From contig BJGT01000006.1 of assembly GCA_014190675.1 (NCBI GenBank), forward strand, positions 1 through 60,525: a stretch of DNA of 60,525 nt, given 5' to 3'. Each line of letters starts with the position of its first letter. Within the stretch, counting starts at the first letter, position 1. Source of the stretch: Comamonadaceae bacterium. Its GTDB lineage: Bacteria; Pseudomonadota; Gammaproteobacteria; Burkholderiales; Burkholderiaceae_C. The translations under genes were made by a program, and so were the position numbers. Positions 29,399 to 47,172 of the stretch are shown one piece after another. A model generated the notes under the pieces. It was not told the origin of the DNA. It searched no databases and was given only the letters and a program-made list of their open reading frames with translations.

Positions 29399-30667
29399 TT
29401 AAAAGCGCGGTCTTTGTTTGCTGAAACCGGGTTGGTGCTTGCGCATCTCGCTGGCATCATCGCGTTGGCGAATGCCGCAGTGCAAAAAATTGGTGTGCAG
29501 GCGGGCCAGGGCGCTCCGGTCAAGTTTGACCCCCAGGCCAGGGCCGGCGGGCGGGGCGAGTTGGCCCTTGATGATGTGCAGTTTGCCGCCCTCGATCACC
29601 TCGTCCTCCTGCCAGGGGTAGTGGGTGTCGCAGGCATAGGACAGGTTGGGCAGGGTCACGCCCAAATGCGTCATGGCCGCCAGGCTGATGCCCAGATGCG
29701 AGTTGGAATGCATGGAAATACCCAGACCAAACACCCGGCCGATGGCCGCGAGCTGCTGCGAGGCGCGCAGCCCGCCCCAGTAATGGTGGTCCGAGAGCAC
29801 CACCTGCACCGCGTTCAGGGCCACTGAGCGCGGCAGGTGGCCAAAGGCAATGGTGACCATGTTGGTGGCAAGCGGCATGGTGGCAAACCTGGCCACCTCG
29901 GCCATTTCTTCCAAACTGCCGACCGGGTCCTCGAGGTATTCGAGCAGCCCGGGCTCAGACAGCGCAGGCATCAGGCGGCGGGTGGTAGACACCGACCAGC
30001 CGCCATTCGGGTCGATGCGCAGCGGGTGCCGGGGAAAAGCCGCACGCAGGGCACGCAGCCCGGCGATTTCCAGCTCGGGCTCAAACACGCCCGCCTTGAG
30101 CTTGATCGAACCAAAGCCATAGTGGCCCACCATGCGCTGCGCCTGTGTCACCAGTTGCTCGGGCGTCAGGGCCTCGCCCCAGGGGTCTGTGGCATAGCCC
30201 GGATCAGCATGGTGCCTGGCGTATTTGTAGAACAGGTAGGCGCTGTAGCTGACATGGCTGCGCAGCGCACCGCCCAGCAAGTCATACACCGGCCGCCCGG
30301 TGATTTGCCCCTGCAAATCCCAGAAAGCCACCTCGAATGCGCCCAGCGCACTGGCCCGGGCCTTGTCGCCCTGGGGCGGATAGGCTGCGCCGATGTCTGG
30401 GTTGTCGCCCATGCAGCGGTAGACCACCTGGGTCAGGGCGTTGAGCGCAAAGGGATCGAGCCCGATGAGCTCAGGGGCAATGCGGTTCAGATCAGCCAGC
30501 GTATCGGCTTCGCCATAGCTTTCGCCCAGGCCGATACGGCCGCTCTCAGTTTCAACTTCGATGATGCTGCGCAGGGCCCAGGGCTGGTGCACGCCAGAGA
30601 CGTTGAGCAATGGCGGGTCGCGAAAAGCAATCGGGGTGATGCGAATCTCGGCAATGCGGTCAGACAT
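29399..30667 (-). CDS. Glucarate dehydratase-like enolase-superfamily enzyme
   Basis: This 422-residue member of the mandelate racemase/enolase superfamily is closest in motifs to D-glucarate dehydratase. The base K-L-K is at 189-191, metal ligands are in RIDPNGGW (D219), LEDP (E246) and TNMV (N269), and SDHHYWGG and MHSNSHLG (H320) complete the site. The reaction would dehydrate an aldarate to 5-keto-4-deoxyglucarate in the cytoplasm. It is the last gene of the nine-gene leftward operon. The 139 bases between its stop and the BLUF gene start show nothing recognisable. Confidence 0.87.
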   Translation of the reverse strand: MSDRIAEIRITPIAFRDPPLLNVSGVHQPWALRSIIEVETESGRIGLGESYGEADTLADLNRIAPELIGLDPFALNALTQVVYRCMGDNPDIGAAYPPQGDKARASALGAFEVAFWDLQGQITGRPVYDLLGGALRSHVSYSAYLFYKYARHHADPGYATDPWGEALTPEQLVTQAQRMVGHYGFGSIKLKAGVFEPELEIAGLRALRAAFPRHPLRIDPNGGWSVSTTRRLMPALSEPGLLEYLEDPVGSLEEMAEVARFATMPLATNMVTIAFGHLPRSVALNAVQVVLSDHHYWGGLRASQQLAAIGRVFGLGISMHSNSHLGISLAAMTHLGVTLPNLSYACDTHYPWQEDEVIEGGKLHIIKGQLAPPAGPGLGVKLDRSALARLHTNFLHCGIRQRDDASEMRKHQPGFSKQRPRF

Positions 30668-30688
30668 GAATCATGGCCTGTGAAAAAA

Positions 30689-31606
30689 TCAAAAAAGGCG
30701 GTCGCTGAGGCTCAAGCTCATCTGCCCGCGCAGCACGCCCCCTGAAGGCAACAACACAGCCCCAGTACCTGGCACACCCCGCGCGGCCAAATTGAAGCCA
30801 TCGGCAACATGGCTCACCGGCTCAAGGCAGAGGTAAATTGGCTGTGGCGGACGGTGCACCACCAGGTGAGACAGCACCGCGTCGGTCTGCAGACCCAACA
30901 CCTCGCCCTGGGGCAATTCCAGCTCCAACGCACCGTCCCATTCCGACAGGTAGTCTGTCAGCGTGCCAGGCGGCAAGGGCTTGGGCGCGTCATAAGCTTC
31001 AGGCTGAGGCAGCGGCTCTGAGCCAAGGGCTAGACAGTCGAGGTCTGTCGACCAACGGCGGCCGGCGTGGTAGCGCAGGCGCGCGTTCTCGTGGTGCAAA
31101 AAATAGGGATGAAAGCCGATGCCAGCCGGCATGTCACCGGCGCCCAAGTGGGTGAGGCTCAGATCAAGTTGCAGCGCGTGGGCTGTCAGGCGAAAGCGCA
31201 TATCAGCCTGCAAATGCCAGGGCCAGGCGGCACAGGCCAGGCTGTCCAGCCGCAGATGGGCGGAGGTATCGTCGTGTGACACCACAGCCCAGGGCAGGCC
31301 ATGGGCATGGCCGTGCAGGGTATGCGGTTGGGCGTTGGGGTGAGGTGGCAGCGCCACCGTGCCACTGGCCGTATGCAATTGGCCCTGGGCGATCCGGTTG
31401 GAATAGGGCACCAGCGGGTAAATGCCGCCCTTGGCCCAGTTCAGCGGGTCGACCCCGGCATCGGTGTACGGGTAAAGAACAGGTACAGCATGCCCGTCAG
31501 GGTGCACCAGGGCCAGGCTGCAGACCCTGCCGCCAGCCTGCGGCCGCAGCACGGCGCGGGCTGCGCCAACGCGCAACAGCACATCACCAGGCAGCAACTC
31601 AGGCAT
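30689..31606 (-). CDS. Aldose 1-epimerase (GalM-like mutarotase)
   Basis: This 305-residue beta-sandwich protein contains the catalytic segments YPLVPYSNRIAQG (about 65-77), HTLHGHAHGLPW (His of NPHxHGxxWxx type), GIGFHPYFL and the C-terminal YLCLEPVSHVADGFN with catalytic Glu. It interconverts anomers of free sugars; in this operon an acidic or oligomeric sugar is a likely substrate. The ATG at 31606 overlaps the upstream dehydratase stop by 8 bases, and upstream codons in the frame are unrelated. Confidence 0.85.
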   Translation of the reverse strand: MPELLPGDVLLRVGAARAVLRPQAGGRVCSLALVHPDGHAVPVLYPYTDAGVDPLNWAKGGIYPLVPYSNRIAQGQLHTASGTVALPPHPNAQPHTLHGHAHGLPWAVVSHDDTSAHLRLDSLACAAWPWHLQADMRFRLTAHALQLDLSLTHLGAGDMPAGIGFHPYFLHHENARLRYHAGRRWSTDLDCLALGSEPLPQPEAYDAPKPLPPGTLTDYLSEWDGALELELPQGEVLGLQTDAVLSHLVVHRPPQPIYLCLEPVSHVADGFNLAARGVPGTGAVLLPSGGVLRGQMSLSLSDRLF

Positions 31607-32795
31607 AGCCGCTGGAGCCGTCAGGCTTGGTCGGCACCTTGCGTTCCCAATGAATGTAGGCTTCGGTACCGAGCAGGGTCTCGTCCACCTCCACTCCCCA
31701 GCCTGGCCGGTTTGGCCGCAGTTCGAGGTGGCCATCTTTGGGCAGATAGGGGTCTTTCACGTACCAGGCGCCCTGTTCCCGCGCCTGCGGGCTCACTGTG
31801 GCGTCTGTGCCAAACACATAGCCTGGCCCCTGCGGCAGGCGGTACTCCAGGATGCGAAAGTTGGTCTGGCTGGCACAAAAATGCAAGTTGACTGCCGTGG
31901 CGAGCGGCCCCATGGGGTTGTGCGGGGCAATGCTCACAAAATGCGCCTGCGCCAGGGCATTGATTTGCAGCATCTCGGTGAGGCCACCCACCACGCAGAT
32001 GTCGGGCTGGATGATGTCGCAGCCGCGCGCCTGCAGCAGGCGCAAAAACTCGAATCTGCTGTAGAGCGACTCGCCCGTGGCCAGTGTGCACTGCAGGCCG
32101 CGCTTGAGTTCACCCCAAGCCTCAAAGTTCTCGGGCCGGATCGGCTCTTCAAAAAACAGCGGGTCATAGGGGGCCAGGGCGTTGCCGAGTTGCATCGCTT
32201 GCGCCGGCTCGAAGATTTTGGCATGGGCATCGAAAGCGATTTCGTACTCGCTGCGAACCGTCTCGCGCAGTTGCCGAAAGTACTCCGCCGAAGTCCGCAC
32301 CACCTCCCCCCAGCGATGCCGGTGCATGTCCAACCGGTAGGGGCTGAGCTTGAATGCCTGCAAGCCCCAGGCCTCGTACAAGGCGTCCATCTGGTCCCGC
32401 GCAATGGCCGGATCGGGTGCGGTGTACAGGCCGGCATACACCTTCACCCGGTCGCGCACATGCCCGCCCAACAGCCGGTACACCGGCACGCCCAGCGCCT
32501 TGGCCGAGATATCCCACAGGCAATGGTCCAGCACCGAGATAGCCGCCAGGCCCAGCGCCCCGGGGGGAAAGCGGGTCTGCTGCATGAGGTAGTGCGTCAG
32601 GTAGGTGATGCGCCGCGGGTCATGTCCCTTGAGGAAGATCAACAGGTAATCCAGCAAGGGGAACAACGCCAAGTCTGGCCCGTGGTTGTAGCACTCGCCC
32701 CAGCCTGTAATGCCGTCGTCGGTGTCCATGGCCACCACCACCCGAGGCCGGTCTTTGTCGCGCGACATGAACACCCGCAGGCGATCAATTTTCAT
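31599..32795 (-). CDS. Sugar-acid dehydratase, DgoD-like (enolase superfamily) 1
   Basis: The 398-residue protein has the galactonate-dehydratase-type active site: D189-x-H191 (FDAHAK), E216 (FFEEP), E242 (ATGES) and H292 (APHN). QPDICVVGGLTE and the Trp/Gly-rich LRPNRPGWGVEVDE C-terminus are also typical of the DgoD/RspA group. It would dehydrate an aldonate (for example galactonate, gluconate or mannonate) to a 2-keto-3-deoxy acid. The ATG at 32795 lies inside the 3' end of the RraA-like gene (11-base overlap). Confidence 0.86.
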   Translation of the reverse strand: MKIDRLRVFMSRDKDRPRVVVAMDTDDGITGWGECYNHGPDLALFPLLDYLLIFLKGHDPRRITYLTHYLMQQTRFPPGALGLAAISVLDHCLWDISAKALGVPVYRLLGGHVRDRVKVYAGLYTAPDPAIARDQMDALYEAWGLQAFKLSPYRLDMHRHRWGEVVRTSAEYFRQLRETVRSEYEIAFDAHAKIFEPAQAMQLGNALAPYDPLFFEEPIRPENFEAWGELKRGLQCTLATGESLYSRFEFLRLLQARGCDIIQPDICVVGGLTEMLQINALAQAHFVSIAPHNPMGPLATAVNLHFCASQTNFRILEYRLPQGPGYVFGTDATVSPQAREQGAWYVKDPYLPKDGHLELRPNRPGWGVEVDETLLGTEAYIHWERKVPTKPDGSSGYA

Positions 32796-33516: not shown

Positions 33517-33518
33517 GG

Positions 33519-34742
33519 TTAGTTTGGGCTGAAGTATTTGGCGCGCTGCAAGCGGGTCTGCACATAGACATTTTCGTCATGGGTGCCGGGCTCATAGGAG
33601 CCCGAACTAGCCGACACCTGTGAAGAAAGATTGGCCTGGCTCGGGTAACGCGCGACAAAGGCTTCATCAATGTCAACGCCCAGGCCGGGCGTATCGGGCA
33701 CCTTCAGAAAACCCTCCACCGACAGCGGATGCGGCAGCACCGTGTGCTGGCGGCCCTCCCAGTCGTCCTCGATCCGCTCCAAAAACAAGCCATTGGGAAT
33801 AGCGGCCAGCAGATGCAGGGCGGCGTATTCGGCCACCGGCCCGAGCGAGCCCGAATGCGGCGCCACCATGATGTGATGGGCTTCGGCCATGGCGGCAATC
33901 TTCTTCATCTGGGTGATGCCGCCAGCCCGTCCGGTGTCGGGCTGGATCACATCCACGAGTTCACGCTCGATCAGCTCCCGCGAGCCGTAAATGGTGCTCA
34001 TGCGCTCGCCGGCGGCCAGCGGCACCTGGGCGGCGTCGCGGATGCGCTTGTAGCCCTCGAGGTTGTCAGGGGCAATCGGGTCTTCAATGAACAGCAGGTG
34101 GTAGGGCTCCAGGGCCCGCGCCAGGCGCGCTGCGTCGCCGGGGGTCATCCAGGGTGGGCCATGCAGGTCGATCATGATGTCCATCTCATCCCCCACCGCC
34201 TCGCGCAGCGCCGCCACTTTTCGCACCGGGTCAGACACGCCGCCACACTTGATGGCAGTCACACCCCGGGCCTTCAGGCTCAGCGCCACTTCTGGTGTGT
34301 TGGCATGGGCATAGATGCGGATCTTGTCACGCACCTTGCCGCCTAGCAGGTTCCAGACCGGCACGCCCAGCGCCTTGCCTTTAATATCCCACAACGCCAT
34401 GTCGATGCCGGTCATGGCACCGGCACCCACAGTGCCGGTCAAACCATGGACCATGATGGCCGACATCATGCGTTGCCACAACCGCTCGATATGGGTCGGG
34501 TCCTCGCCGACCAGCAGACGTTTGAGGTCTTGTACTGCGGTCTCGATCACGCGGGGCCAGCCCGAACATTCGCCAATGCCCACCAGGCCTTCGTCGGTGT
34601 AGACCTTGACAAACAGCCAGTTGCGGGTGCCGGTGATGCCAGGCGAGTAGCTCTGGCTGCCAAAGGCATTGTCAGACGCCCAGGCCTTGGGAGCCGGTGC
34701 GCCCACATGCATCAGGAAGGTCTTGATGTCGGTGATTTTCAT
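33519..34742 (-). CDS. Sugar-acid dehydratase, DgoD-like (enolase superfamily) 2
   Basis: This 407-residue enolase-superfamily enzyme shares the D-x-H...E...E...H pattern with the operon's other DgoD-like protein: D192-x-H194 (IDLHG), E220 (FIEDP), E246 (AAGER) and H296 (APHSG). It also has QPDTGRAGGITQ and K165 in AIKCGG. The C-terminal 40 residues extend past the barrel. Sequence differs enough from paralogue 1 to suggest a different acid sugar. It lies 9 bases before the importer ATPase gene in transcription order, linking uptake and catabolism. Confidence 0.86.
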   Translation of the reverse strand: MKITDIKTFLMHVGAPAPKAWASDNAFGSQSYSPGITGTRNWLFVKVYTDEGLVGIGECSGWPRVIETAVQDLKRLLVGEDPTHIERLWQRMMSAIMVHGLTGTVGAGAMTGIDMALWDIKGKALGVPVWNLLGGKVRDKIRIYAHANTPEVALSLKARGVTAIKCGGVSDPVRKVAALREAVGDEMDIMIDLHGPPWMTPGDAARLARALEPYHLLFIEDPIAPDNLEGYKRIRDAAQVPLAAGERMSTIYGSRELIERELVDVIQPDTGRAGGITQMKKIAAMAEAHHIMVAPHSGSLGPVAEYAALHLLAAIPNGLFLERIEDDWEGRQHTVLPHPLSVEGFLKVPDTPGLGVDIDEAFVARYPSQANLSSQVSASSGSYEPGTHDENVYVQTRLQRAKYFSPN

Positions 34743-34751
34743 GACGGCAAC

Positions 34752-36478
<1,727 letters not shown>

Positions 36479-36482
<4 letters not shown>

Positions 36483-37627
36483 TTGTTGTAGGGGTCTGAA
36501 GCATCCCGCAGCCCGTCGCCCAGAAAATTGAGCGCCATCACCGCCAGCACCACGGCGGCACCAGGGGCAAACAGCCAGGGAGCGGTGGCAATCGAGCGGA
36601 TGTTCTGCGCCTCGCGCAGCAGCACGCCCCAGGAGATGGTGGGAGGCTGAAGGCCCAGGCCCAGAAAGCTCAACGATGTTTCAGCCAAAATCATGGCGGG
36701 TATGGCCAGCGAGATCGAGGCGATGATATGGCTGGAAAAACTGGGCAGCATGTGGCGGAAGATGATGCGGCCTTCGGAGGCGCCGTCCAGCCGCGCGGCG
36801 GTGACGAACTCTTCGGTGCGCAGACTCAAAAACCGGCCACGCACCACCCGCGCCAACTGGGCCCAGCCGGTCAGGGACAAGATCAGGGTGATCATGAAGT
36901 AGTTCAAAGTCGCTGGCCAGTTTTGTGGCACTGCGGCAGAAGCTGCCAGCCAGATCGGTATGGTAGGCAAGGACAGCACCAGCTCGATCACCCGCTGGAT
37001 GACAAAGTCAATACGCCCGCCGTAATAGCCAGAGATGCCGCCCAGCACAATGCCAATGGACAGGGCCAGGAGCACGCCCACCAGCCCGACCGAGAGCGAA
37101 ATCTGGGTGCCCAACATGATGCGGCTGAAGACGCAACGCCCCAGCCGGTCGGCGCCAAAAAAGAACAGGGGTTGGCGCGCCTCTTGAGAGGCGAACAGAT
37201 GCAGGCGCGAATTGAACAGGCCCAGCACCGAGTACTCGTAGCCCTGGCCGAACATCTGCAAATACACCTTGCGGCTCAGGTCTTCCTGGTAGACCGAGGC
37301 CAGGGTCTGTGGATCACGCTTGAGCACATAGGGGTGTATGTAGGGCTGCAGCGACCAAGCCCCTTCGGCCGAGGTGTCAATCAGGTGCAGCGCTTGGGGC
37401 GGATGAAAGGCGGTACGCACATTTTGTTGAGACGGGTCGTTCACAGCAAAAAAACCTGGCACTACCGCCACCAGGTACAGCGCCAGGGTCACCACCAGGC
37501 CCGCCATGGCCAAGCGATGGCGCTTGAAGGCCCACCACACCAACTGCCATTGGGAGGCCACAGCCAGGCGGCTTGCCCCCTCGCTCAGGCTCTGCGGCTC
37601 CGGCTTGAGCAGGCTTGCGCTATTCAA
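36479..37627 (-). CDS. DppC-type permease with large periplasmic insert
   Basis: This inner-membrane permease has a first helix around MAGLVVTLALYLVAVVPGFF, then about 90 extra periplasmic residues (including QPYIHPYVLKRDPQTLASVY), then FGADRLGRCVFSRIM and the normal five-helix core with the coupling loop GASEGRIIFRHMLPS. Ordinary DppC has only about 25 residues in that first loop; the long form occurs in transporters of oligosaccharides or other bulky ligands. The start is uncertain: TTG at 37627 (382 residues) or GTG at 37666, both overlapping dppB. Confidence 0.85.
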
Positions 37628-38606
37628 GGCGAATACGCGGATCAACCAGCGCCAACAAAATATCACTCACCAGGGAACCGAGCACGGTCAGCAGGCAGAT
37701 CAGCAAAATAAAGGCGCCGGCCAGGTACATGTCCTGGCTCATCAAGGACTGCAGCAGCAGCGGCCCTGCCGTGGGCAGACTCAGCACAATAGCCACGATG
37801 ATGGAGCCCGAGACCAGGTTGGGCAGCAACCAGGCGATGGTCGATATAAAGGGGTTGAGCGCCAGGCGCAAGGGGTACTTGACCAGCAACGCAAACTCGG
37901 ACAAACCCTTGGCCCTGGCGGTGGTGACATAGGCCTTGGGCAGCTCGTCGAGCATGTTGGCGCGCATCACCCGGATCAGGCTGGCGGTGCCGGAGACCGC
38001 GAGAATCACCACTGGAATCCACAAATGGGCCAGCAGGTCCAGGGTTTTGGCCACACTCCAGGGTGCGGTCAGGTATTCCTCAGAAAACAGGCCGCCCACG
38101 TTTTGGCCAAACTTCACAGCGGCGATGTACATCAGCACCAAGGCCAGCAAAAAACTCGGTACAGCCAGCCCAATGAACGACAGACCGGTCACGACATAGT
38201 CTGCGATCGAGTATTTTTTAACCGCCGAAAACACCCCCACCGGCAAGGCAATGCCCCAGGTGAGCAGCAGCGCCGAGAGCGTGAGCAGCAGGGTCAGGGC
38301 CATGCGCTCCCAAATCAGGTCGCCAACTGGCTGCTGCCATTCAAAGCTCAGCCCAAAGTCACCATGCAAGACGATGTTGGAGATCCACTTCCAGTACTGA
38401 ACCACCATCGGCTGGTCCAGACCAAATCGGTTGCGCAAATCGGCTGCGGTGTTTTGATCGATGACCTCGTTGGACGCCGCCAGTGTGGCGATGTAGGTGG
38501 TGACATAGTCGCCGGGCGGCAGCTGAATCAACACAAAGGACAAAAAGCTGATGGCCAGCAGGAAGGGCACCATCCACAGGAGTCGCTTGACAATAAAAAT
38601 CAACAT
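37620..38606 (-). CDS. DppB-type permease
   Basis: This 328-residue permease has the N-terminal helix LIFIVKRLLWMVPFLLAISFLSFVLIQLPPGD typical of DppB/OppB. The conserved RFGLDQPMVVQYWKWISNIVLHGDFGLSF segment and the coupling loop TARAKGLSEFALLVKYPLR are present. About six transmembrane helices are visible. The gene lies 88 bases after the binding-protein gene, with a stable hairpin in between, and overlaps dppC. Confidence 0.92.
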   Translation of the reverse strand: MLIFIVKRLLWMVPFLLAISFLSFVLIQLPPGDYVTTYIATLAASNEVIDQNTAADLRNRFGLDQPMVVQYWKWISNIVLHGDFGLSFEWQQPVGDLIWERMALTLLLTLSALLLTWGIALPVGVFSAVKKYSIADYVVTGLSFIGLAVPSFLLALVLMYIAAVKFGQNVGGLFSEEYLTAPWSVAKTLDLLAHLWIPVVILAVSGTASLIRVMRANMLDELPKAYVTTARAKGLSEFALLVKYPLRLALNPFISTIAWLLPNLVSGSIIVAIVLSLPTAGPLLLQSLMSQDMYLAGAFILLICLLTVLGSLVSDILLALVDPRIRLE

Positions 38607-38694: not shown

Positions 38695-40650
38695 TTAAGT
38701 CCGGGTGAAGAAGAACTGCTGCGGCAAGGCTGGGGCAGGATTGGGCCAGGCCCAGGCATTGGGGTAGCTTTTGGGCACATTTTGCAAATTGTTCTTGACG
38801 ATGCCGAAGGTGTTGACTGCCAAGCACACGCCAATGGTCTCGAAGGCGTCAGCGCATAAATCGAACACCTGCTTCATCAACTCGCCACGCTTTTTCATGT
38901 CGGCCGTGGCACGGGCATCGTCATAGAGTTTCATGCGCTGCTTTTGGTTGGCCGGCGGCTCTTGGCCGTCCTTGCCACCTGACACATACCACTGGGTCCA
39001 GGGCAATGCATAGCGCGAGCCCTGGGTGTGCTGGGCAAAATAGTCTCGGGCATCGAGCATGGGGTCCAGCCCGCCCGGGCCTGGCCAGGTGGCAGCGTCA
39101 TGGTCGTTGCTGTCGCCACGGGTGTAGTAGAGCGCCCGCTCGATGGTGTTGACCTTCATGTCCACACCGATCTCGGCCCAGTGGCGCTTGACCAGCTCCA
39201 GGCTGTCCACCGCATCGGGGTAGAGGGTGGGAATCACATCGATGGAGAAAAACACCCTTTGGCCGTCCGGGCGCAGTCGGAACTTTTGTGCGTCCCGCTT
39301 GCTGTAGCCAATACGGTCGAGTATGTCGTTGGCCGACTTGGGGTCGTGTTTGGTGAATTGCGTGGCGAGTTTTTCATTGAACCAGGGGTGCCCCGGCCGC
39401 GGGCCGGTTTGAAAGGGCTCGGACTGCCCGAGGTAGACCAGGTCGATGATTTCCTTGCGGTTGATGCCCAAGGAGAGGGCCTGCCGGAACTCCTTGTTGG
39501 CAAACATGTCGCGCATCTTGGGGTCTTTATGGGTCATGTTCAGGTAAATCTGCACCTGCTGCGCGCCGGAAGCCACCAACTCAACCAGACGGTAGCCGCC
39601 TTTTTGCATGTTTTGCGACAAGGTAGGCTTGTTTTGCAAAGAGTCGATGTGACGCTCTTGAATATCGAGCTTGCCCGACAGGGCATCGAGCATCAGCGAC
39701 TCGACATCTTGGGCAATGCCGAAGTTCAGTCGGTCGATGTAGGGCAGTTGTTGACCGGTCTGGTCGACCTGCCAAAAATAAGCGTTGCGCTCCATCACCA
39801 CCCGGGTGACCCCGCCTGAATAGGCCTCGGTCACCACCCAGGGGTCCAGCGTGGGCTTGTCCACATTGCCCCAGCGCGACGGGATTTCGATGTCGCCGCA
39901 TTTGTTGCGAAACAGGGATGCCCAGTCGGACAGATTGGCCGCCTTGGCTTGTGCCGCCACGTTCGGGTTGTACTTGGGGTGAAACTGGCTGCAGTAGTGC
40001 TTGGGAAACAGTGTCGGGTACTGGCCCAGCGGTGTGGCGAGTTGCTCCAAAAACAAGGCATAGGGCGTGGCAAAGGTGAACTTCACGGTGGTGTCATTGA
40101 CCTTGGTCACCACCGCTGGCTTGTTGGCGATCACCAGGGTCGAGGGCACTGATTTGTACAACTCGGTGTTTTTGGCACAGTCCTCGATCGAAAAAACAAT
40201 GTCATCGGCACTGAATGGCTTGCCGTCCGACCACTTCATGCCGGGGCGCAGGGTGAAGGTGAACTCGGTGGAATTGGCGTTGACATCCCATTTGGATGCG
40301 ACACAGGGCAACACTTCGGTGAAGGCCAGATTCCAGCGCACCAGGCCCTGGTTGCCGACCATGCGCAAGATGCCGTTGTGGTCGGAGCTGCCGCGCAGGC
40401 CGCGCCGCAGGGCGCCGCCGTAGGTGCCCACTTTTTCAGCCTGAACCACCAGCGGGGCCGATGGCAAACGCTGCGCCAACGCCGGCAATTTGCCTTCGCT
40501 CACCAACTTGGCCAAAGCCGGCGCCTCTTTGCCGGCCTGCGCCCAGGCTGCGCTGCCTACGCCGGCCAGGGTGACGGCCCCGGCAAAGCCTTTGAGAACC
40601 TGCCGGCGACCGGGGCTGCGGGGGCTTGATGAACGAGGGGATGACTTCAT
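38695..40650 (-). CDS. Family-5 periplasmic solute-binding protein
   Basis: This 651-residue SBP_bac_5 protein begins with a twin-arginine signal (RRQVLKGFAGAVTLAGVGSAAWAQA), suggesting Tat export of a folded protein. Family segments include NSTEFTFTLRPGMKWSDGKPFSADDIVFS and LGINRKEIIDLVYLGQ. At over 600 residues it is longer than dipeptide-binding DppA (about 510) and closer to binding proteins for oligosaccharides or opine-like ligands. A ribosome site GGAG stands 8 bases before the ATG. It is the first gene of the nine-gene leftward operon, which implies the ligand is the operon's substrate. Confidence 0.9.
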   Translation of the reverse strand: MKSSPRSSSPRSPGRRQVLKGFAGAVTLAGVGSAAWAQAGKEAPALAKLVSEGKLPALAQRLPSAPLVVQAEKVGTYGGALRRGLRGSSDHNGILRMVGNQGLVRWNLAFTEVLPCVASKWDVNANSTEFTFTLRPGMKWSDGKPFSADDIVFSIEDCAKNTELYKSVPSTLVIANKPAVVTKVNDTTVKFTFATPYALFLEQLATPLGQYPTLFPKHYCSQFHPKYNPNVAAQAKAANLSDWASLFRNKCGDIEIPSRWGNVDKPTLDPWVVTEAYSGGVTRVVMERNAYFWQVDQTGQQLPYIDRLNFGIAQDVESLMLDALSGKLDIQERHIDSLQNKPTLSQNMQKGGYRLVELVASGAQQVQIYLNMTHKDPKMRDMFANKEFRQALSLGINRKEIIDLVYLGQSEPFQTGPRPGHPWFNEKLATQFTKHDPKSANDILDRIGYSKRDAQKFRLRPDGQRVFFSIDVIPTLYPDAVDSLELVKRHWAEIGVDMKVNTIERALYYTRGDSNDHDAATWPGPGGLDPMLDARDYFAQHTQGSRYALPWTQWYVSGGKDGQEPPANQKQRMKLYDDARATADMKKRGELMKQVFDLCADAFETIGVCLAVNTFGIVKNNLQNVPKSYPNAWAWPNPAPALPQQFFFTRT

Positions 40651-40710
40651 GTCTGTACTCCAACAAGGTTTGAAAAAATAACTGTCAGCCGGATCTGGCG
40701 GCTTGGCCAA

Positions 40711-40810: not shown

Positions 40811-40848
40811 TTGCAGGCAACAAATAATGGTGCTAAATTGTCAGGCAA
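40811..40848 (+). promoter_or_regulatory. Promoter and operator of the rightward operon
   Basis: On the plus strand TTGCAG (40811-40816) and an extended -10 TGCTAAATT (hexamer 40834-40839) are 17 bases apart. The near-palindrome TTGTC-A-GGCAA (40838-40848) lies over the end of the -10 and the expected start site, and TTGC-AG-GCAA (40811-40820) covers the -35. This geometry suits repression by the same protein as the leftward operator. Confidence 0.6.
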
Positions 40849-40893
40849 CTGTAAATTCGTCATACATCTTTGTGACCAAGGCTGCCGTTACCC

Positions 40894-41814
40894 ATGAAAA
40901 CTTCCCCGCTGCACCTCCATGAGCTTGCCGAATCGGTGCTGGCGGTGCCGCCGCTGGCCAGGCAGGAAGACCTGAGCATCGCAGAGGCGCCCAACCGGCG
41001 CTTGATCAAACACATCGAGGCCGGCGGCATCCGCACCCTGCTGTATGGCGGCAACGCCAACCTATACCACATGCCGCTGCGCGAATACCAGGCCCTGCTG
41101 GACCTGTTAGCTGATGCTGCCGGACCGCAAACCCGGGTCATACCTTCGGTGGGACCAGACTTTGGCAAGATGATCGAGCAGGCGCCCATGCTGCGCGATT
41201 CGGGCTACCAGACCGCCATGGTCCTGCCCATGCAGGGCCTGAGCACTTCCGAAGGCGTGGCCGAGGGCATCGCGCGCTTTGTCGACATCGCCGGCATACC
41301 TGTCACCCTGTACATCAAGAGCGAGCAGTACATCGACCTCGACCGACTCGAGCGCCTGGTGGCTGACGGCTTGGTGCTGTGCGTCAAATACGCCATCCTG
41401 CGCAGCGACCCTGATACCGACCCTTTTTTGCAGGCCCTGCTCGAGCGGATTTCAGCCCAGCGCATGGTCAGCGGCATGGGCGAGCGCCCGGTTTTATCGC
41501 ATGTGGGGCGGTTTGGCATGGCGTCTTTCACCACCGGCTCTGGCTGCATCGCGCCAAACTCCTGCAGCGCCCTGCTGCGCGCCCTGCAGGGCTCAGACAT
41601 GGCGAGCGCCCAGCCGCTGCACGCTCGCTTCTTGCCGCTGGAGACCCTGCGCGACTCGGTGTCGCTGATTCGCGTGCTGCATGACGCGGTCAGCCTGTGC
41701 GGGATTGCCGACATGGGGCCACAGCTGCCTCTGCTGAGCGCCTCGCCGGCAGAGATGACTGGGCAGATCGAAGCCACGGCCCGGCGCCTGCTGGCATCTG
41801 AGACTGCTGCCTGA
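40894..41814 (+). CDS. Dihydrodipicolinate-synthase-family lyase
   Basis: This 306-residue TIM-barrel lyase of the DapA/NanA/KdgA class has a presumed Schiff-base K165 (LCVKYAIL) and Y140 (VTLYIKSEQ) in the expected spacing. The phosphate/carboxylate loop that usually reads GTTGE is GGNAN here (52-56), so the substrate is probably not pyruvate-plus-aldehyde of lysine synthesis. In this operon it likely cleaves or dehydrates a 2-keto-3-deoxy sugar acid. It is the first gene of the rightward operon, with its promoter and operators immediately upstream. The exact reaction is unknown. Confidence 0.82.
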   Translation: MKTSPLHLHELAESVLAVPPLARQEDLSIAEAPNRRLIKHIEAGGIRTLLYGGNANLYHMPLREYQALLDLLADAAGPQTRVIPSVGPDFGKMIEQAPMLRDSGYQTAMVLPMQGLSTSEGVAEGIARFVDIAGIPVTLYIKSEQYIDLDRLERLVADGLVLCVKYAILRSDPDTDPFLQALLERISAQRMVSGMGERPVLSHVGRFGMASFTTGSGCIAPNSCSALLRALQGSDMASAQPLHARFLPLETLRDSVSLIRVLHDAVSLCGIADMGPQLPLLSASPAEMTGQIEATARRLLASETAA

Positions 41815-41829
41815 CAAGCGCGCGATGCC

Positions 41830-42522
41830 ATGACGCAGCTCCGCGCCACCGAAGGACTGGCAGACCGGGTTTACCGGGAACTGCTGGCGCTGATCATCCA
41901 GGGTGATCTGCAAGAGGGCGACAGGCTGTCGACCGAACAGGCAATTGCAGACCAGTTCAAGACCTCCCGGCCAACCGTGCGCGAAGCCCTGTCGCGTCTG
42001 CGGGCCGACGGCATCATCGCCAGCCGCCAAGGCGCAGGCACCTTTGTCACGCGCCGGCCAGACCCCGATTTGCCCCGCTTCATGCCACTTGAGTCACTCT
42101 CCGATGTACGGCGTTGCCTGGAATTTCGCATCGTCATCGAGGGTGGGGCGGCGGCTTTGGCAGCACAAATGGCCGATGAGGCAGACCTGACGCAGATTCA
42201 GGCTGAACTCGCCCTGCTGCAGACCGCTGTGAGCCAAAACAGCCTTGGCGTGCAGGAGGATTTCGGCTTTCACATGGCCATCGCCCGGGCCAGCAAAAAC
42301 CAATTTTTTGTTTCTGTGATTGCCAGTATCGAGTCCCATGTGGTGTTTGGCATGGACCTGCTGCGACGTTTCTCGCTCAGCAAAAGCCATGAGCGCCTGA
42401 TCGGCGTTCAGGCCGAACATGTGGCGGTGGTTGAGGCCATCCTGCAGCACGACAGCACAGCGGCTGAGGCAGCCATGCGGCGACACCTGCAAAATACCCG
42501 TCGGCGCATGTTTGGCAGCTGA
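41830..42522 (+). CDS. GntR-family (FadR/FCD) transcriptional repressor
   Basis: This 230-residue regulator has an N-terminal winged helix (about 8-75, with SRPTVREALSRLRADGIIASRQGAGTFV) and a C-terminal FCD ligand domain (about 95-225). The FCD domain shows metal-site residues typical of the family, in DFGFHMAIARAS and HVAVVEAILQHD. Such regulators usually sense the sugar acid their operon degrades. The gene is second in the rightward operon, so it would repress itself, and palindromes fitting its class lie in the shared control region. Confidence 0.9.
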   Translation: MTQLRATEGLADRVYRELLALIIQGDLQEGDRLSTEQAIADQFKTSRPTVREALSRLRADGIIASRQGAGTFVTRRPDPDLPRFMPLESLSDVRRCLEFRIVIEGGAAALAAQMADEADLTQIQAELALLQTAVSQNSLGVQEDFGFHMAIARASKNQFFVSVIASIESHVVFGMDLLRRFSLSKSHERLIGVQAEHVAVVEAILQHDSTAAEAAMRRHLQNTRRRMFGS

Positions 42523-42559
42523 CTCGGCTTTTTTCTGACCATCCCATCAAGGTGCATTT

Positions 42560-43351
42560 ATGATTCCCCGCCTGTTACTCACCGGTGCCGCCGGCAACCT
42601 CGGCCGCCACCTGCGCGGCAGTCTGCGCCCCTATGCCCAGAACATCCGCTTGTCTGACATTTCGGCCATGGCGCCCGCCGCGGCCGGTGAGGAGCTTGAG
42701 GTCTGCGATCTGGCCAACAAACAGGCGGTTGACCGCTTGACCCAAGGCTGCCAGGCCATCGTCCACCTCGGCGGCTTGGCCAACGAGCATTCTTTTGAGG
42801 CCATCGTCGAAGCCAACATCAAAGGCGTGTTGCATGTCTACGAAGGGGCGCGCCGCCACGGCGTCGAGCGGGTGGTGTTTGCCAGCTCAAACCATGTGGT
42901 GGGCTTTCATCGGCAGGACGAGTTTTTGGCCACCGATTGCAGCCGCCGGCCAGACACCTATTACGGCCTGTCCAAGTCGTTTGGCGAAGATGTAGCCCAG
43001 TTTTATTGGGACCGCTACGGCATACAGAGCGCCAGTCTGCGGATTGGCTCGGCCTTTCCCGAACCCAAAGACCGGCGCATGCTGCACACCTGGATGAGCT
43101 ACCGCGACCTGACCGAATTGATTCGCTGCTGCCTGTTCGCGCCACAACTGGCGCACACCATCGTCTACGGCATGTCAGACAACCGCGACCCCTGGTGGAC
43201 CAATGCCCGCGCCGCCCACCTCGGCTTCAAACCCCAAGACAGCTCCGAACCCTTCCGCGCCGTACGCGAACAGCAAAGCCCGCTGCCGCCAGACGACCCC
43301 GCCCGCATCTACCAAGGCGGCGCCTTCGTCAAACTCGGTCCCTTCAACTGA
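42560..43351 (+). CDS. udh: Uronate dehydrogenase
   Basis: Udh oxidises D-galacturonate or D-glucuronate with NAD+ to the aldarolactone, the first step of oxidative hexuronate catabolism. The 263-residue SDR has GAAGNLG at 9-15, the Udh-specific [28 protein letters not shown] (about 107-121), Y135-x-x-x-K139 in [35 protein letters not shown] and the C-terminal [13 protein letters not shown]. These match the known Pseudomonas/Agrobacterium enzymes throughout. A ribosome site AAGGTG precedes the ATG. It identifies the operon's substrate class. Confidence 0.92.
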
Positions 43352-43363
43352 ACTAATTGGAAC

Positions 43364-43434
43364 TAATTGGGGTCAGATTCCAATTAAATTCACATTTCAA
43401 ACATGGAGAAATAATTGGAATCTGACCCCAATTA
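43364..43434. repeat. Palindromic repeat element, copy B
   Basis: Perfect 22-base inverted arms (43364-43385 and 43413-43434) enclose a 27-base loop. The arm sequence is that of copy A at 18893-18948, but the arms are in reversed order. It fills the 88-bp space between udh and the IlvD-type gene and stops 5 bases before the latter's ATG. Just before it the 10-mer AACTAATTGG occurs twice in tandem (43351-43370). Confidence 0.92.
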
Positions 43435-43439
43435 AATTT

Positions 43440-45185
43440 ATGACACGAAAAAAACCTGAGGAATTGCGCAGCCACCGGTGGTACGGGGTGAAAGATTTGC
43501 GGTCGTTTGGGCACCGCTCGCGTACCGCGCAAATGGGCTACCACCGCAGCGACTATGCGGGCAAGCCGGTGATTGCCATCATCAACACCTGGAGCGATAT
43601 CAACCCCTGCCACAGCCACTTCAAGCAGCGGGTAGAGGAAGTCAAGCGGGGGGTGTGGCAGGCAGGGGGCTTCCCGGTGGAGATGCCGGCGATGTCGCTG
43701 TCTGAGCCGTTTCAAAAACCCACCACCATGCTCTACCGCAACCTGCTGGCGATGGAGACCGAAGAATTGCTCCGCTCTTACCCCGCCGATGGCTGCGTGC
43801 TGATGGGTGGCTGCGACAAGACCACACCAGCCTTGGTGATGGGCGCCTTGTCGATGAACCTGCCGAGCATTTTTGTGCCGGCCGGTCCGATGCTGCGTGG
43901 CGACTACAAGGGTGCAGCTTTGGGCAGCGGCAGCGACACCTGGAAATACTGGGCCGAGCTGCGTGCCGGCAATATCAGCGAGCAGGATTGGCAGGATGTC
44001 GAGGACGGTATTGCCCGCAGCCCCGGCCACTGCATGACCATGGGCACTGCCAGCACCATGACCAGCGCGGTGGAAGTGCTGGGCTTGACCCTGCCCGGAG
44101 CTGCTTCGATACCAGCGCCCGACTCACGCCATGCCCAAATGGCCAGCCTGAGCGGCAAGCATGCGGTCGAGATGGTCTGGCAGGACATCAAGCCGCTTGA
44201 TTTTTTGACCCCTGCATCGTTTGACAACGCGGTCACCACGGTGCTGGCTCTGGGCGGCTCCACCAACGCCATCGTGCACCTGATTGCCATGGCCAAGCGG
44301 GCCGGCATTGGTTTGACACTGGACCGCTTTGACCAACTCGCGCGCCGTACGCCGGTGCTGGCCAACCTGCGCCCGGGTGGCAAGTTTTTGATGGAAGATT
44401 TTTTTTACGCAGGGGGCCTGCGGGCCTTTCTGACCCGCCTGACAGACCTGCTGGATTTGACCCAAAACACCTGCGTTGGCAAGACCTTGGGCGACAACAT
44501 CGCGGGTGCCGTGGTGCACAACGACGAGGTCATCCTGCCGCGCGACAAGCCCCTGCTGCCGAACGACGGGCTGGCCATTTTGCACGGCAACCTGGCACCC
44601 GATGGTGCGGTCATCAAACCCGCTGCCATGGAGGCGCATTTACGCCAGCACACGGGGCCTGCGCTGGTGTTCAAAGACTACCAAGACATGGCCGAGCGTA
44701 TCGACGATCCGGACTTGGATGTCGATAAAAACAGCGTCTTGGTACTTCAAAGCGCCGGGCCCCAGGGCGCGCCTGGCATGCCCGAATGGGGTCAGTTACC
44801 GATCCCGCAAAAACTGCTCAAACAGGGGGTGCGCGACATGCTGCGCATCAGTGATGCCCGCATGAGCGGCACCAGCTATGGCGCCTGTGTTTTGCATGTC
44901 ACACCGGAATCCCATATTGGCGGCCCGCTGGCCCTGGTGCGCGATGGCGACATGATCCAGATCGATGTCCAGGCCCGCCGGCTTGATCTGCTGATCGGTG
45001 ATGCCGAGCTGGCACAGCGCCGCGCCGCCTGGCAGGCGCCAAGCGTCAAGTTCACGCGGGGCTATGGCAAGCTCTACCTCAAGCATATCCAGCAGGCGGA
45101 CAAGGGCTGCGATTTTGATTTTTTGGAGCCCGATGTTGAATCTGCCAGACAGCAACTGCCGCCGGGCGAGCCTGAGATACATTGA
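43440..45185 (+). CDS. IlvD/Edd-family sugar-acid dehydratase
   Basis: This 581-residue Fe-S dehydratase is close in motifs to L-arabonate/D-xylonate dehydratases rather than to IlvD of branched-chain synthesis. Cluster ligands are C57 (INPCHSHF), C125 (GGCDKTTP) and C198 ([11 protein letters not shown]). The C-terminal catalytic region has [12 protein letters not shown] and [15 protein letters not shown]. The family dehydrates aldonates to 2-keto-3-deoxy acids. The ATG at 43440 fits family N-termini, but no Shine-Dalgarno is visible because the palindromic repeat ends 5 bases upstream. Confidence 0.87.
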
Positions 45186-45217
45186 GACCCTCTCTGTTCT
45201 CTGGCAAGGAGCCAAAC

Positions 45218-45613
45218 ATGCATCCTGATGTGTCCTACCCGCGCGAGCCCGATACGCCAGTCTCGCACCTGCCCTTCAGCCCAGCAGTGCGCGTGGGGCA
45301 GTTGGTTTTTGTTTCGGGGCAGGCCTCGGTTGACCCTGCGGGGGCCATCGTCTCGGACACCTTTGAAGGCGAGTTCAGGCGCTCTGTGGAGAACCTGAGC
45401 AAGGTGCTGCAATCTGCCGGTTGCACGCTCAAACAGGTGGTACAGACCCGCAACTATGTGCGCGATGTTGCCGACTTGCCCGAGTTCAACCGGCTCTACC
45501 GCGAGTATTTTCAGGCGCCCTACCCGGCCCGTACCACCATCACGGGCTGCCTGTCGCCGGCGCTGCGCTTCGAACTGGAGTGCATCGCTGTAGCCGACCC
45601 CACCAAGCCATGA
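45218..45613 (+). CDS. RidA/YjgF-family enamine/imine deaminase
   Basis: The 131-residue protein belongs to the RidA superfamily. Key residues are R105 in PARTTITG and E121 in FELECIA; both are used by active RidA to hydrolyse 2-aminoacrylate-type intermediates. VFVSGQASVDPAG is the N-terminal signature. A strong ribosome site (AAGGAG) is 7 bases before the ATG. It overlaps the following hydrolase gene by 4 bases (ATGA). A detoxifying role towards a reactive intermediate of the pathway is plausible but not shown. Confidence 0.88.
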   Translation: MHPDVSYPREPDTPVSHLPFSPAVRVGQLVFVSGQASVDPAGAIVSDTFEGEFRRSVENLSKVLQSAGCTLKQVVQTRNYVRDVADLPEFNRLYREYFQAPYPARTTITGCLSPALRFELECIAVADPTKP

Positions 45614-47172
45614 GCCGCCCGAGAAAAGTTCTTTTCATTTCGGCAGATCAATGGCGCGGCGAGTGCCTCTCGGCGCTGGGGCATGGCGTGCTCAAAACCC
45701 CGCACCTGGACGCGTTGGCAGCCGAAGGGGTGCTGTTCAAGCAGCATTTTTCGGTCACCTCGCCTTGTGGTCCGGCGCGCTCGAGCCTGCATACTGGCCT
45801 CTACCTGATGAACCACCGGGTCGGGCGCAACGGCACACCGCTGGACCAGCGCCATACGAATTTGGCCAAGGAGGTGCGCAAACTGGGGTTTGACCCGGTG
45901 CTTTTTGGTTATACCGACACCAGCGCCGACCCGCGTGGGCGCGATCCGGGTGACGCCGCCCTGCGCACCTATGAGGGCCCGCTGACAGGCTACCAGGTTG
46001 GCCTGTTGTTTCCCGACTTCATGACGGCCTGGATGAAAGACCTGCATGCCAAGGGCTATGTCTTCGAGGGTCGGCAGGATATCTACCAGCCCATGCCCGG
46101 TGTACTGCCGCCTGCCGGTCGCGGCCACCGGTTCATACCGGCACGGTTCAAGGCGCCGGACAGCGACACCAATTTCATGGCCGACCAGGTGCTGTCCTGG
46201 CTGGGCCAGCACCGCGAAGAAGACTGGTTCATGCACTGCGTGTTTCTGCGACCGCACCCGCCGGTGATCACCCCCTACCCCTACAACGAGCGCTATGACC
46301 CGGCCGACATACCACTGCCCCAGCGCCAGCCGACGCAGCAGCAGGAGGCAGCCCAACATCCCCACCTGGCGCAATGGCTGGCCTGCCTGGAGCGCCCCAA
46401 CCGCTACGACGAGCACAACCCGAACAATTTACTGCACATGCCCGAGCTCGAGTTGCGGCAGATGCGGGCCTGCTACTACGGCATGATGAACGAGGTCGAT
46501 GACGCAGTGGGGCGTATCGTGTCCTACCTCAAGGCGAGCGGCGAGTACGACAACACCTTGATCGTTTTTACCTGCGACCATGGCGAGATGGGCGGCGACC
46601 ATCACGCCTGGGGCAAAGAGCTTTACTTTGATGCCAGCTTTTATATTCCCCTGATCATTCGCGACCCGCTGAGCTCAGCCGACATTGCGCGCGGCCGCCA
46701 GGTTGACGCCTTCACTGAATCGGTAGACCTGATGCCCACCCTGCTCAACTGGCTGGGTGCCGACATACCAGCCCAATGCGATGGGCGCTCCCTGCTGCCG
46801 TTTCTGCAGGGCCAAACACCGCCCCAGTGGCGCCAAGAGGCGCACATGGAGCTCGACTTTCGCGACAGCCCCTGGAGCATTTTCAATGCCCAAAGCGCGC
46901 TGCAACTCAGTCCGGACGAATGCCAGTTGGCCATCTTGCGCGGACGACGCTGGAAGTACATCCACTTTGCCGCCCTGCCACCGCTGTTGTTTGACCTGGC
47001 GGCCGACCCGCATGAAATGCGTAATCTTGCGCAAGACCCCGCCTGCCAGGCTGTGATGCTGGAGATGGCCCAAAAGCTGCTGTCATGGCGCCTGGTTCAG
47101 CAGGAGCATGTACTGAGCAATTTGCATGCTGGCCCGCAAGGGCTTGAAGACCGCAGCCGACGCCCGGGCTAG
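45610..47172 (+). CDS. Sulfatase-superfamily hydrolase, phosphonate monoester hydrolase type
   Basis: This 520-residue alkaline-phosphatase-fold enzyme carries the formylglycine motif C53-G-P-A-R57, where C53 is expected to be oxidised to formylglycine. D13-Q14 and CDHGEMGGDHH (about 321-331) form the metal site. FGYTDTSADPR, LRQMRACYYGMMNEVDDAVGRI and the C-terminal QKLLSWRLVQQEH/GPQGL resemble the promiscuous phosphonate monoester hydrolases more than arylsulfatases. It has no signal peptide, so it acts in the cytoplasm. It overlaps RidA by 4 bases and ends the sugar-acid operon, facing the NMO-like gene. Confidence 0.85.
   Translation: MSRPRKVLFISADQWRGECLSALGHGVLKTPHLDALAAEGVLFKQHFSVTSPCGPARSSLHTGLYLMNHRVGRNGTPLDQRHTNLAKEVRKLGFDPVLFGYTDTSADPRGRDPGDAALRTYEGPLTGYQVGLLFPDFMTAWMKDLHAKGYVFEGRQDIYQPMPGVLPPAGRGHRFIPARFKAPDSDTNFMADQVLSWLGQHREEDWFMHCVFLRPHPPVITPYPYNERYDPADIPLPQRQPTQQQEAAQHPHLAQWLACLERPNRYDEHNPNNLLHMPELELRQMRACYYGMMNEVDDAVGRIVSYLKASGEYDNTLIVFTCDHGEMGGDHHAWGKELYFDASFYIPLIIRDPLSSADIARGRQVDAFTESVDLMPTLLNWLGADIPAQCDGRSLLPFLQGQTPPQWRQEAHMELDFRDSPWSIFNAQSALQLSPDECQLAILRGRRWKYIHFAALPPLLFDLAADPHEMRNLAQDPACQAVMLEMAQKLLSWRLVQQEHVLSNLHAGPQGLEDRSRRPG

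What the first reader, a model, noticed from the sequence alone, without database searches (positions are those of the whole stretch)
29399..47172. Fifteen-gene divergent cluster for hexuronate/acid-sugar catabolism with four dehydratases
Seen: two tightly packed divergent operons around 40.65-40.89 kb. They hold a Dpp-type importer, three enolase-superfamily dehydratases (one GudD-like, two DgoD-like), an IlvD/Edd-type dehydratase, RraA-like and DHDPS-like lyases, mutarotase, Udh, RidA, a sulfatase-fold hydrolase and a GntR/FCD regulator. Known: Udh makes aldarolactones from galacturonate/glucuronate, and GudD dehydrates aldarates. Inference: a broad acid-sugar scavenging system, perhaps for uronate-containing oligosaccharides or glycosides, that degrades several epimers in parallel. 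The lactone-opening enzyme is not recognisable here, so one of the odd members may supply it.
Basis: partly seen in the sequence, partly recalled or inferred. Interest (0 to 1): 0.7.

Follow-up and report, generated by a model that had tools for sequence, protein, structure and literature searches.

The report
Uronate uptake and breakdown gene cluster
A Rhodoferax-like bacterium carries a 15-gene cluster that most likely imports a sugar acid of the kind found in plant and algal cell walls and oxidises it for food; the route is known in outline, but this set of parts, including an uncharacterised enzyme family and a changed importer pocket, looks new.

Summary

The strongest new evidence is the importer's binding protein. 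Its best solved match is SPH1118, a pectin-binding protein. At one constant register it keeps all five residues that hold a single galacturonate and lacks most of those that hold only the second and third sugars.

Best reading: uptake and oxidative (Udh-type) breakdown of a uronate or uronate conjugate. The DHDPS-like enzyme is a deep-branching, uncharacterised family member; elsewhere its genes often sit near IlvD and aldehyde dehydrogenase genes. I infer that it makes alpha-ketoglutarate semialdehyde.

The idea that an odd member opens the lactone is not supported: most distant relatives carry a beta-propeller lactonase, and this genome has a related one elsewhere, beside glucarate genes. 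IlvD (window and L023) and RraA (window) are not shared with the other sisters; five of those carry a PhyH dioxygenase.

The substrate is unproven. Verdict: new variant of a known kind.

The parts
29399..30667 (-). E1: GudD-like enolase-superfamily dehydratase, nearest solved 4IT1/3VDG
   Evidence: (TIGR03247 237 bits, cut-off 829); motifs KLKAG, RIDPNG, DHHYWGG, MHSNSH
30689..31606 (-). Aldose-1-epimerase-like mutarotase (start inferred; ORF opens at 31735)
   Evidence: start inferred from the overlap with E2
31599..32795 (-). E2: DgoD-like dehydratase, nearest solved 4JN7/4JN8; Agrobacterium relatives labelled galactarate dehydratase in plasmid records
32785..33516 (-). RraA-like lyase (PRK08245 family, 322 bits against cut-off 208)
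33519..34742 (-). E3: second DgoD-like enolase-superfamily dehydratase
   Evidence: NF010624 278 bits against cut-off 311
34752..36482 (-). Fused Dpp/Opp-type ATPase (two ABC domains)
36479..37666 (-). Permease, DppC/OppC type (start uncertain)
37620..38606 (-). Permease, DppB/OppB type
38695..40650 (-). SBP_bac_5 binding protein, SPH1118 (pectin-binding) type, TAT-like signal by eye
   Evidence: 597 bits to 7VER; ligand residues
40721..40731 (.). Operator-like palindrome TTGTCTGACAA on the SBP side
   Evidence: only exact match in the window; conserved in relatives
40838..40848 (.). Second operator-like site TTGTCAGGCAA on the DHDPS side
40894..41814 (+). Deep-branching DHDPS/NAL-superfamily enzyme (GGNANLYH, LYIKS, K165)
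41830..42522 (+). GntR/FCD regulator
42560..43351 (+). Udh: uronate dehydrogenase
   Evidence: 6MFH 276, 3AY3 267, 3RFT 255 bits; SSNH, YGLSK, RIGS
43364..43434 (.). REP-like inverted repeat forming a 23-bp hairpin just before IlvD
43440..45185 (+). IlvD/EDD dehydratase, L-arabinonate dehydratase type (974 bits against cut-off 882)
   Evidence: three Cys motifs
45182..45613 (+). RidA-family protein
45610..47172 (+). PehA/PMH-type phosphoric or sulfuric ester hydrolase, CGPAR motif (formylglycine site, recalled)

Best explanation
A regulated cluster for uptake and oxidative breakdown of a hexuronate (galacturonate/glucuronate type), or of a small conjugate that presents one such residue. The exported binding protein holds the uronate in a site like subsite 1 of SPH1118; the Dpp-type ABC importer brings it in; the mutarotase supplies the right anomer; Udh makes the aldarolactone; a lactonase encoded elsewhere (C17) or spontaneous hydrolysis opens it; E1, E2 and E3 dehydrate the resulting aldarates to keto-deoxy hexarate; the DHDPS-like enzyme dehydrates and decarboxylates that to alpha-ketoglutarate semialdehyde. 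The FCD regulator controls both operons from TTGTCNGACAA sites. IlvD and RraA form a second branch for an aldonate in the window's lineage; PehA removes a phosphate or sulfate ester from part of the substrate pool. Shown by computation: families, register-matched ligand residues, recurrence, conservation of the operator-like site. Inferred: every reaction, every substrate, regulator binding and the use of C17.
For: SBP: best solved match SPH1118 (597 bits), whose contacts with GalUA and unsaturated triGalUA are tabulated in PMC9314435 section 8. At one constant offset (+39) 9 of 16 contact residues are identical, next best offset 4; all 5 contacts of the single-GalUA complex (N53, R57, E216, R496, W594) plus R466 are kept and are invariant in every ortholog row that covers them. 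Udh matches solved uronate dehydrogenases. Among 398 phylum genomes sampled, 6 (own included) have an E2 ortholog at 1e-120; in the 5 others, from 3 genera, it lies in the same 20 kb as the importer, a GntR and a Udh-like gene. In L017, L022 and L122 a KdgD-like gene (L017: PRK03620 157 bits, below its 278 cut-off) stands in the divergent operon where the window has the DHDPS-like gene. In 71 other loci of the DHDPS-like family without this SBP, IlvD is nearby in 55, an aldehyde dehydrogenase in 36 and an SMP-30 lactonase in 22. A pentose-pathway paper places L-KDP dehydratase in the same Schiff-base superfamily (PMC6336799 passage). Operator: at least 9 of 10 fixed bases on the SBP side in 10 of 11 loci, window included. 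Own genome C17 has GudD, GarL and a lactonase 48-49% identical to in-cluster lactonases of L035 and Bosea.
Against: No lactonase and no aldehyde dehydrogenase in the cluster; the Paraburkholderia-type aldehyde dehydrogenase gave no match in this genome at 1e-40 (a search without its own positive control) and no gene passes the one KGSADH model used (best 430 of 770 bits). The DHDPS-like protein scores only 29 bits to PRK03620 and 25 to KdgD, and its fold search ranks sialic acid aldolase chains above KdgD (rank 38; TM-scores alike), so an aldolase is not excluded. The C17 lactonase scores best to the 6-phosphogluconolactonase model (314 of 370 bits), so its use here is a guess from relatives. 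E505, which also touches GalUA1 in the trisaccharide complex, is not kept. The residue comparison rests on a constant-offset register, not a printed alignment. The operator count in the window (4 with up to 1 mismatch) is reached by 6 of 100 shuffles, so only position and conservation speak for it. SPH1118 itself binds polymer and oligomers, so preference for a monomer is inferred.
Confidence: 0.7

Rival explanations
1. Importer for pectin or longer oligogalacturonides, as in Sphingomonas A1, with cytoplasmic cleavage by enzymes encoded elsewhere.
For: Nearest solved homologue SPH1118 binds pectin, polygalacturonan and unsaturated trigalacturonate.
Against: Of seven residues that contact only sugars 2 and 3 (L295, S298, N324, R438, D483, V484, F592) only S298 is kept in the window, and position 438 is Arg in none of 16 ortholog rows. 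No glycosidase or lyase recognised in the cluster; no GH28 in the genome. GH105 and pectate lyase families were not searched.
Confidence: 0.15
2. A Weimberg-type aldonate pathway (L-arabinonate or another pentonate/hexonate) in which IlvD, the DHDPS-like enzyme and RraA are the core and Udh and the enolases are extras.
For: The DHDPS-like family is near IlvD in 55 of 71 other loci and near an aldehyde dehydrogenase in 36 of 71; IlvD passes the L-arabinonate dehydratase cut-off. S. meliloti L019 and G064 (L012, L013) also have DHDPS-like, IlvD and RraA genes together.
Against: Among 10 sister loci with the importer, IlvD is found in 1 (L023) and RraA in 0, while Udh and the DHDPS-like gene stay where the locus is long enough, L031 excepted, which has no Udh. 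The in-cluster oxidoreductase is Udh, not a known arabinose dehydrogenase.
Confidence: 0.1
3. The DHDPS-like enzyme is an aldolase giving pyruvate plus an aldehyde, not a dehydratase.
For: Schiff-base Lys and Tyr are present; aldolases are common in this superfamily and top the fold search; the genome encodes GarL at C17, so aldol cleavage of a keto-deoxy hexarate is available.
Against: Its place is taken by a KdgD-like gene in L017, L022 and L122 and it is often near an aldehyde dehydrogenase elsewhere.
Confidence: 0.3
4. The substrate is a phosphate or sulfate ester (or diester) of a uronate; PehA is a central first step after import.
For: PehA overlaps RidA in the operon and is kept in L023-L026 and L028; PehA lies beside another Dpp-type importer in 4 of 8 other contexts examined (L118, L119, L130, L131; not in L120, L127-L129); R294, invariant in 17 of 17 rows, is the SPH1118 residue that binds a sulfonate of MES.
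Against: No PehA hit in L035, L031 or L096, nor in L017, L018, L022, L121-L125; PMH enzymes are promiscuous (recalled), so activity alone would not prove the role.
Confidence: 0.25

Closest known systems
Oxidative uronate pathway of Agrobacterium tumefaciens and Pseudomonas (Udh, Gli, Gci, KdgD, KGSADH; also UxuL/UxuF lactonases)
   Same: Udh first step, enolase-superfamily enzymes, DHDPS-superfamily enzyme downstream (review PMC6353982, passages seen; enzyme superfamilies partly recalled)
   Different: No lactonase or KGSADH recognised in the cluster, neither E2 nor E3 closest to Gci; different DHDPS subfamily; Dpp-type importer instead of a TRAP system; three enolase-superfamily members plus IlvD
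SPH1114-SPH1118 pectin importer of Sphingomonas sp. A1
   Same: SBP, permease and ATPase families; conserved site for one galacturonate
   Different: Residues for the second and third sugar are changed; here it is coupled to an oxidative catabolic operon
pAt-plasmid clusters of Agrobacterium (pAt15955, pAspH13-3a) and Bosea pNBC550
   Same: Importer, E2 and mutarotase-like gene, FCD or IclR-type regulator; Bosea also E1, E3 and a Udh-like gene
   Different: They have an SMP-30 or 7-bladed lactonase and (Agrobacterium) a KdgD-like enzyme; no PehA, RidA or IlvD hit in the stretches fetched
Weimberg-type IlvD + DHDPS-superfamily + aldehyde dehydrogenase pathway
   Same: IlvD type and the DHDPS-like subfamily as in Paraburkholderia loci
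   Different: No sugar dehydrogenase of that pathway or aldehyde dehydrogenase in the cluster; IlvD absent from most sister loci

Membership tests
Oxidative uronate pathway (Udh type) | Udh homologous to solved uronate dehydrogenases with catalytic motifs | tested here: met
   motifs (their roles recalled)
Oxidative uronate pathway (Udh type) | Lactone-processing enzyme in the cluster | tested here: not met
   no PF08450 or PF10282 match on the window's contig and no tblastn hit in the window; the genome has three SGL and two full-length PF10282 genes elsewhere
Oxidative uronate pathway (Udh type) | KGSADH | tested here: not met
   none in cluster; genome best 430 bits against a 770 cut-off for one model; other KGSADH types not tested
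KdgD (TIGR03249 / PRK03620) | curated cut-off | tested here: not met
   DHDPS-like protein 25.5 of 373.95 and 29 of 278 bits
DHDPS/NAL superfamily | TIM-barrel fold with Schiff-base Lys and Tyr | tested here: met
   model pLDDT 86.7, TM about 0.8 to NAL/DHDPS/KdgD chains; Tyr in 30 of 30 and Lys in 29 of 30 rows
SPH1118-type uronate-binding SBP | residues of the single-GalUA complex | tested here: met
   5 of 5 by constant-offset register
SPH1118-type uronate-binding SBP | residues for GalUA2 and unsaturated GalUA only | tested here: not met
   1 of 7 kept
Glucarate dehydratase GudD (TIGR03247) | curated cut-off | tested here: not met
   E1 237.3 of 828.7 bits; the C17 gene of the same genome scores 819.9
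Galactonate dehydratase DgoD (NF010624) | curated cut-off | tested here: not met
   E2 239.5 and E3 278 of 311 bits
L-arabinonate dehydratase (NF009559) | curated cut-off and three cluster Cys | tested here: met
   973.9 of 882 bits; [23 protein letters not shown]; role of these Cys recalled
PehA (NF045661) | curated cut-off | tested here: not met
   559.2 of 900 bits; CxPxR motif present
Galactarolactone cycloisomerase Gci | closest relationship of E2 or E3 to 4GGB/4HPN (that these are Gci is recalled) | tested here: not met
   4GGB ranks 12th for E2 and 32nd for E3; activity not testable

The most novel reading that the evidence does not exclude
The cluster is built for O-substituted uronates (methyl ethers or sulfate/phosphate esters from algal or plant walls), not plain galacturonate. 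The importer keeps the pocket for one uronate but has rebuilt the side where a second sugar would sit, so it accepts a small substituent; PehA removes an ester; in five sister loci a PhyH dioxygenase between the regulator and Udh removes or oxidises the substituent; in the window's lineage IlvD and RraA serve a different branch. The DHDPS-like GGNANLYH family would then be a separate solution to making alpha-ketoglutarate semialdehyde from sugar acids.
Probability: 0.22. Interest if true: 0.7.

Novelty: new variant of a known kind. Interest (0 to 1): 0.45.

Why it matters
It joins an SPH1118-type importer, which I know only from pectin chemotaxis and uptake, to the Udh pathway, and it gives a residue-level prediction of what that importer family selects. 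It gives a testable function to an uncharacterised branch of the DHDPS superfamily (the capped scan kept 80 of 516 relatives). And it shows a divergent catabolic cluster exchanging single enzymes (PhyH, IlvD, RraA, lactonase, KdgD-like) while the importer and regulator, and mostly Udh, stay.

Tried and rejected
Lactonase among the odd members: SMP-30 and 7-bladed lactonase queries gave no hit in the window; the L035 and Bosea lactonases and the C17 homologue explain the gap better. Gci role for E2 or E3: not the closest solved relative. SMP-30 genes at C36, C13 and C161: by sequence look only, C36 lies beside genes that I read as a galactonate-type set, C13 beside a mutarotase-like gene, C161 in a setting that I could not relate; I prefer C17. 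Polymer import: weak, see rivals. Literature: searches for Udh with galactarolactone/cycloisomerase, Agrobacterium galactarate dehydratase/pAt, PMH natural substrate, SPH1118 (52), Sphingomonas pectin SBP, PhyH with uronate demethylation, Udh cluster with peptide ABC and mandelate racemase and UxuL/UxuF (103) listed no paper that I recognised as describing this cluster; I judged by titles and starts of abstracts, and most subscription papers are not in that library. Fold search did not separate dehydratase from aldolase. A PHROGs scan of the BLUF protein gave only a family of unknown function.
Full report
Observation. The 15 genes are real, tightly packed and divergent around 40.65-40.89 kb. 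Left operon (minus strand, 40650 to 29399): SBP, two permeases, fused ATPase, E3, RraA-like, E2, mutarotase, E1. Right operon (plus strand, 40894 to 47172): DHDPS-like, GntR/FCD, Udh, IlvD, RidA, PehA. The window lies in a 3.69 Mb genome of 275 contigs. By the DHDPS-like gene the nearest named record is a Rhodoferax MAG, isolate Baikal-deep-G92 (L023; its genes in common are 96-99% identical).

The importer. The SBP's best solved match is SPH1118 of Sphingomonas A1 (597 bits; next 5IPW 359 bits; DppA 73 bits). SPH1118 is a pectin-binding protein needed for pectin chemotaxis and assimilation (PMC7055323 passages; PMC9314435 abstract, passages and section 8). The 16 residues that contact a ligand in the paper's tables were mapped with a constant offset. 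At +39, 9 of 16 are identical; over offsets -40 to +56 the next best gives 4. The single-galacturonate complex uses N53, R57, E216, R496 and W594: all five are kept, as is R466. E505, which also touches the first sugar in the trisaccharide complex, is not. Of seven residues touching only the second and third sugar, one (S298) is kept. In orthologs (18 rows, some partial, some near-identical) N53, R57 and E216 are invariant in 18 of 18, R294 in 17 of 17, R466 and R496 in 16 of 16, W594 in 15 of 15; position 438 is Arg in 0 of 16 and position 483 is Trp in 16 of 16. Against a background of 211 invariant columns of 639, this looks like selective retention of one uronate site. The mapping assumes no local indels.

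Recurrence. Beside the window, SBP and DHDPS-like genes are adjacent and divergent in 10 betaproteobacterial loci (by record title or kinship): L014, L023-L028, L031, L035, L096. L023, L024, L027, L028 and L096 are cut on the left, so missing left-operon genes there say nothing; L014 and L027 are cut on the right. E2 and E3 lie next to each other in L014, L025, L026, L031 and L035, all five that cover the place; E1 is seen in L014, L026 and L035. Udh is seen in L023-L026, L028, L035 and L096, not in L031. Among 398 genomes sampled across the phylum, 6 including the own have an E2 ortholog at 1e-120; in all 5 others, from 3 genera, the importer, a GntR and a Udh-like gene (37-51% identical) lie within the fetched 20 kb; E3 at 71-73% is in L121 and L123, a 29-32% hit in L124 and L125, none in L122. 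Agrobacterium pAt plasmids have importer, E2 and a mutarotase-like gene but no Udh hit in the stretch; Bosea pNBC550 has these with E1, E3 and a Udh-like gene. The DHDPS-like gene is found in 7 of 200 family genomes (own included) at 1e-15; the one listed congener has none.

Regulation. TTGTCTGACAA at 40721 is the only exact TTGTCNGACAA in the window; 40838 has one mismatch. Four sites with up to one mismatch were found; 6 of 100 shuffles reach four, so number alone is weak. Conservation is stronger: on the SBP side at least 9 of 10 fixed bases match in 10 of 11 regions including the window; in L027 the best site lies on the DHDPS side; L124 and L125 reach 9, while L017, L018 and L121-L123 reach only 7-8. 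That the FCD protein binds there is inferred.

The DHDPS-like enzyme. It is far from curated KdgD (25-29 bits) and from any solved structure by sequence (best 53 bits with a profile). Its AlphaFold model (pLDDT 86.7) has the NAL/DHDPS fold: the 50 chains listed have TM about 0.8 at 16-22% identity, KdgD 4UR7 at rank 38. Tyr140 is in 30 of 30 rows and Lys165 in 29 of 30, the exception being L028. Function is inferred from place. A KdgD-like gene holds the same divergent operon in L017, L022 and L122. Among 71 family loci without this SBP, IlvD is near in 55, an aldehyde dehydrogenase in 36, an SMP-30 lactonase in 22 with the Paraburkholderia query and in 12 with the Agrobacterium query, overlap not counted. 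The scan reported 516 relatives and kept the best 80, so these counts describe the nearest members, largely Paraburkholderia and Caballeronia, many closely related and some cut short.

The lactone step. No SMP-30 or PF10282 relative lies in the window. Among the eight distant loci, SMP-30 is found in L017, L022, L121, L122, L124 and L125 (Pfam run on the L017 protein only; the others by annotation or tblastn, 32-59%) and a 7-bladed lactonase in L018, that is 7 of 8; L123 is cut on that side. In L035 a PF10282 lactonase follows Udh; the other nine sister loci show none. The own genome has three SMP-30 genes and two full-length PF10282 genes plus two partial matches. The one at C17 is 48-49% identical to the L035 and Bosea enzymes, scores 314 of 370 bits to the 6-phosphogluconolactonase model, and lies near GarL (over its cut-off), an FCD regulator and a GudD scoring 819.9 against 828.7. 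It is my best candidate in trans, untested. Because C17 already has a typical GudD, E1 (237 bits to that model) is probably not simply another one.

Lineage-specific parts. In L024, L025, L026, L028 and L035 a PhyH dioxygenase (PF05721, 130 and 128 bits for the two scanned) sits between GntR and Udh. Of the 10 sister loci IlvD is found only in L023 and RraA in none; five of them (L014, L025, L026, L031, L035) cover the RraA place. RraA does occur in more distant clusters, for example L121 (63%), L013 (60%) and S. meliloti L019 (58%). A REP-like hairpin (23 bp, -38 kcal/mol, z -8.0) lies immediately before IlvD; the element has 19 exact copies in the genome and none in the reversed control. PehA is kept in L023-L026 and L028. 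Elsewhere it lies beside a different Dpp-type importer in 4 of 8 contexts examined: three of 33 plasmid records and the five non-self hits among 369 class genomes.

Mechanism and limits. I favour uptake of a uronate or small conjugate and Udh-type oxidation, confidence 0.7. All reaction assignments are inferred. Weak points are the missing KGSADH, the undecided dehydratase-or-aldolase question, and the unproven substrate. Novelty: the pathway type is known (PMC6353982 passages); the combination was not recognised in the eight searches listed under Tried and rejected, in a library that lacks most subscription journals.

Noticed in passing
window 43364-43434; also 18892-18949: REP-like palindromic element built on TGGGGTCAGATTCCAATTA; 19 exact copies in the genome, none in the reversed control. 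One pair sits just before IlvD.
   Followed up: partly
own genome, e.g. G000 C31, C70, C11, C66, C200: 14 PhyH matches in a 3.7 Mb genome; on C70, C31 and C11 a PhyH gene lies within about 10 kb of a DHDPS-family gene.
   Followed up: no
L137 (G000 C17:1-12000): Separate glucarate gene set: GudD, GarL, FCD regulator and a 7-bladed lactonase 48-49% identical to in-cluster lactonases of relatives.
   Followed up: partly
L028:2992-3909: DHDPS-like gene of this MAG has Asn in place of the Schiff-base Lys165: a real change or a sequencing error.
   Followed up: no
L118, L119, L130, L131: PehA-type hydrolase genes beside Dpp-type importers whose binding proteins differ from the window's (28-30% identical in L130 and L131, no hit in L118 and L119), suggesting that PehA substrates are often imported conjugates.
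   Followed up: partly
window 26107-28785 and 28825-29259: NMT1/TauT-type ABC importer (binding protein, permease, ATPase) and a BLUF blue-light sensor directly beyond the cluster.
   Followed up: no
L124:6626-7864: 3-oxo-tetronate kinase (over its cut-off) beside the Udh-like gene, hinting that some Udh-like genes serve tetronate catabolism.
   Followed up: no
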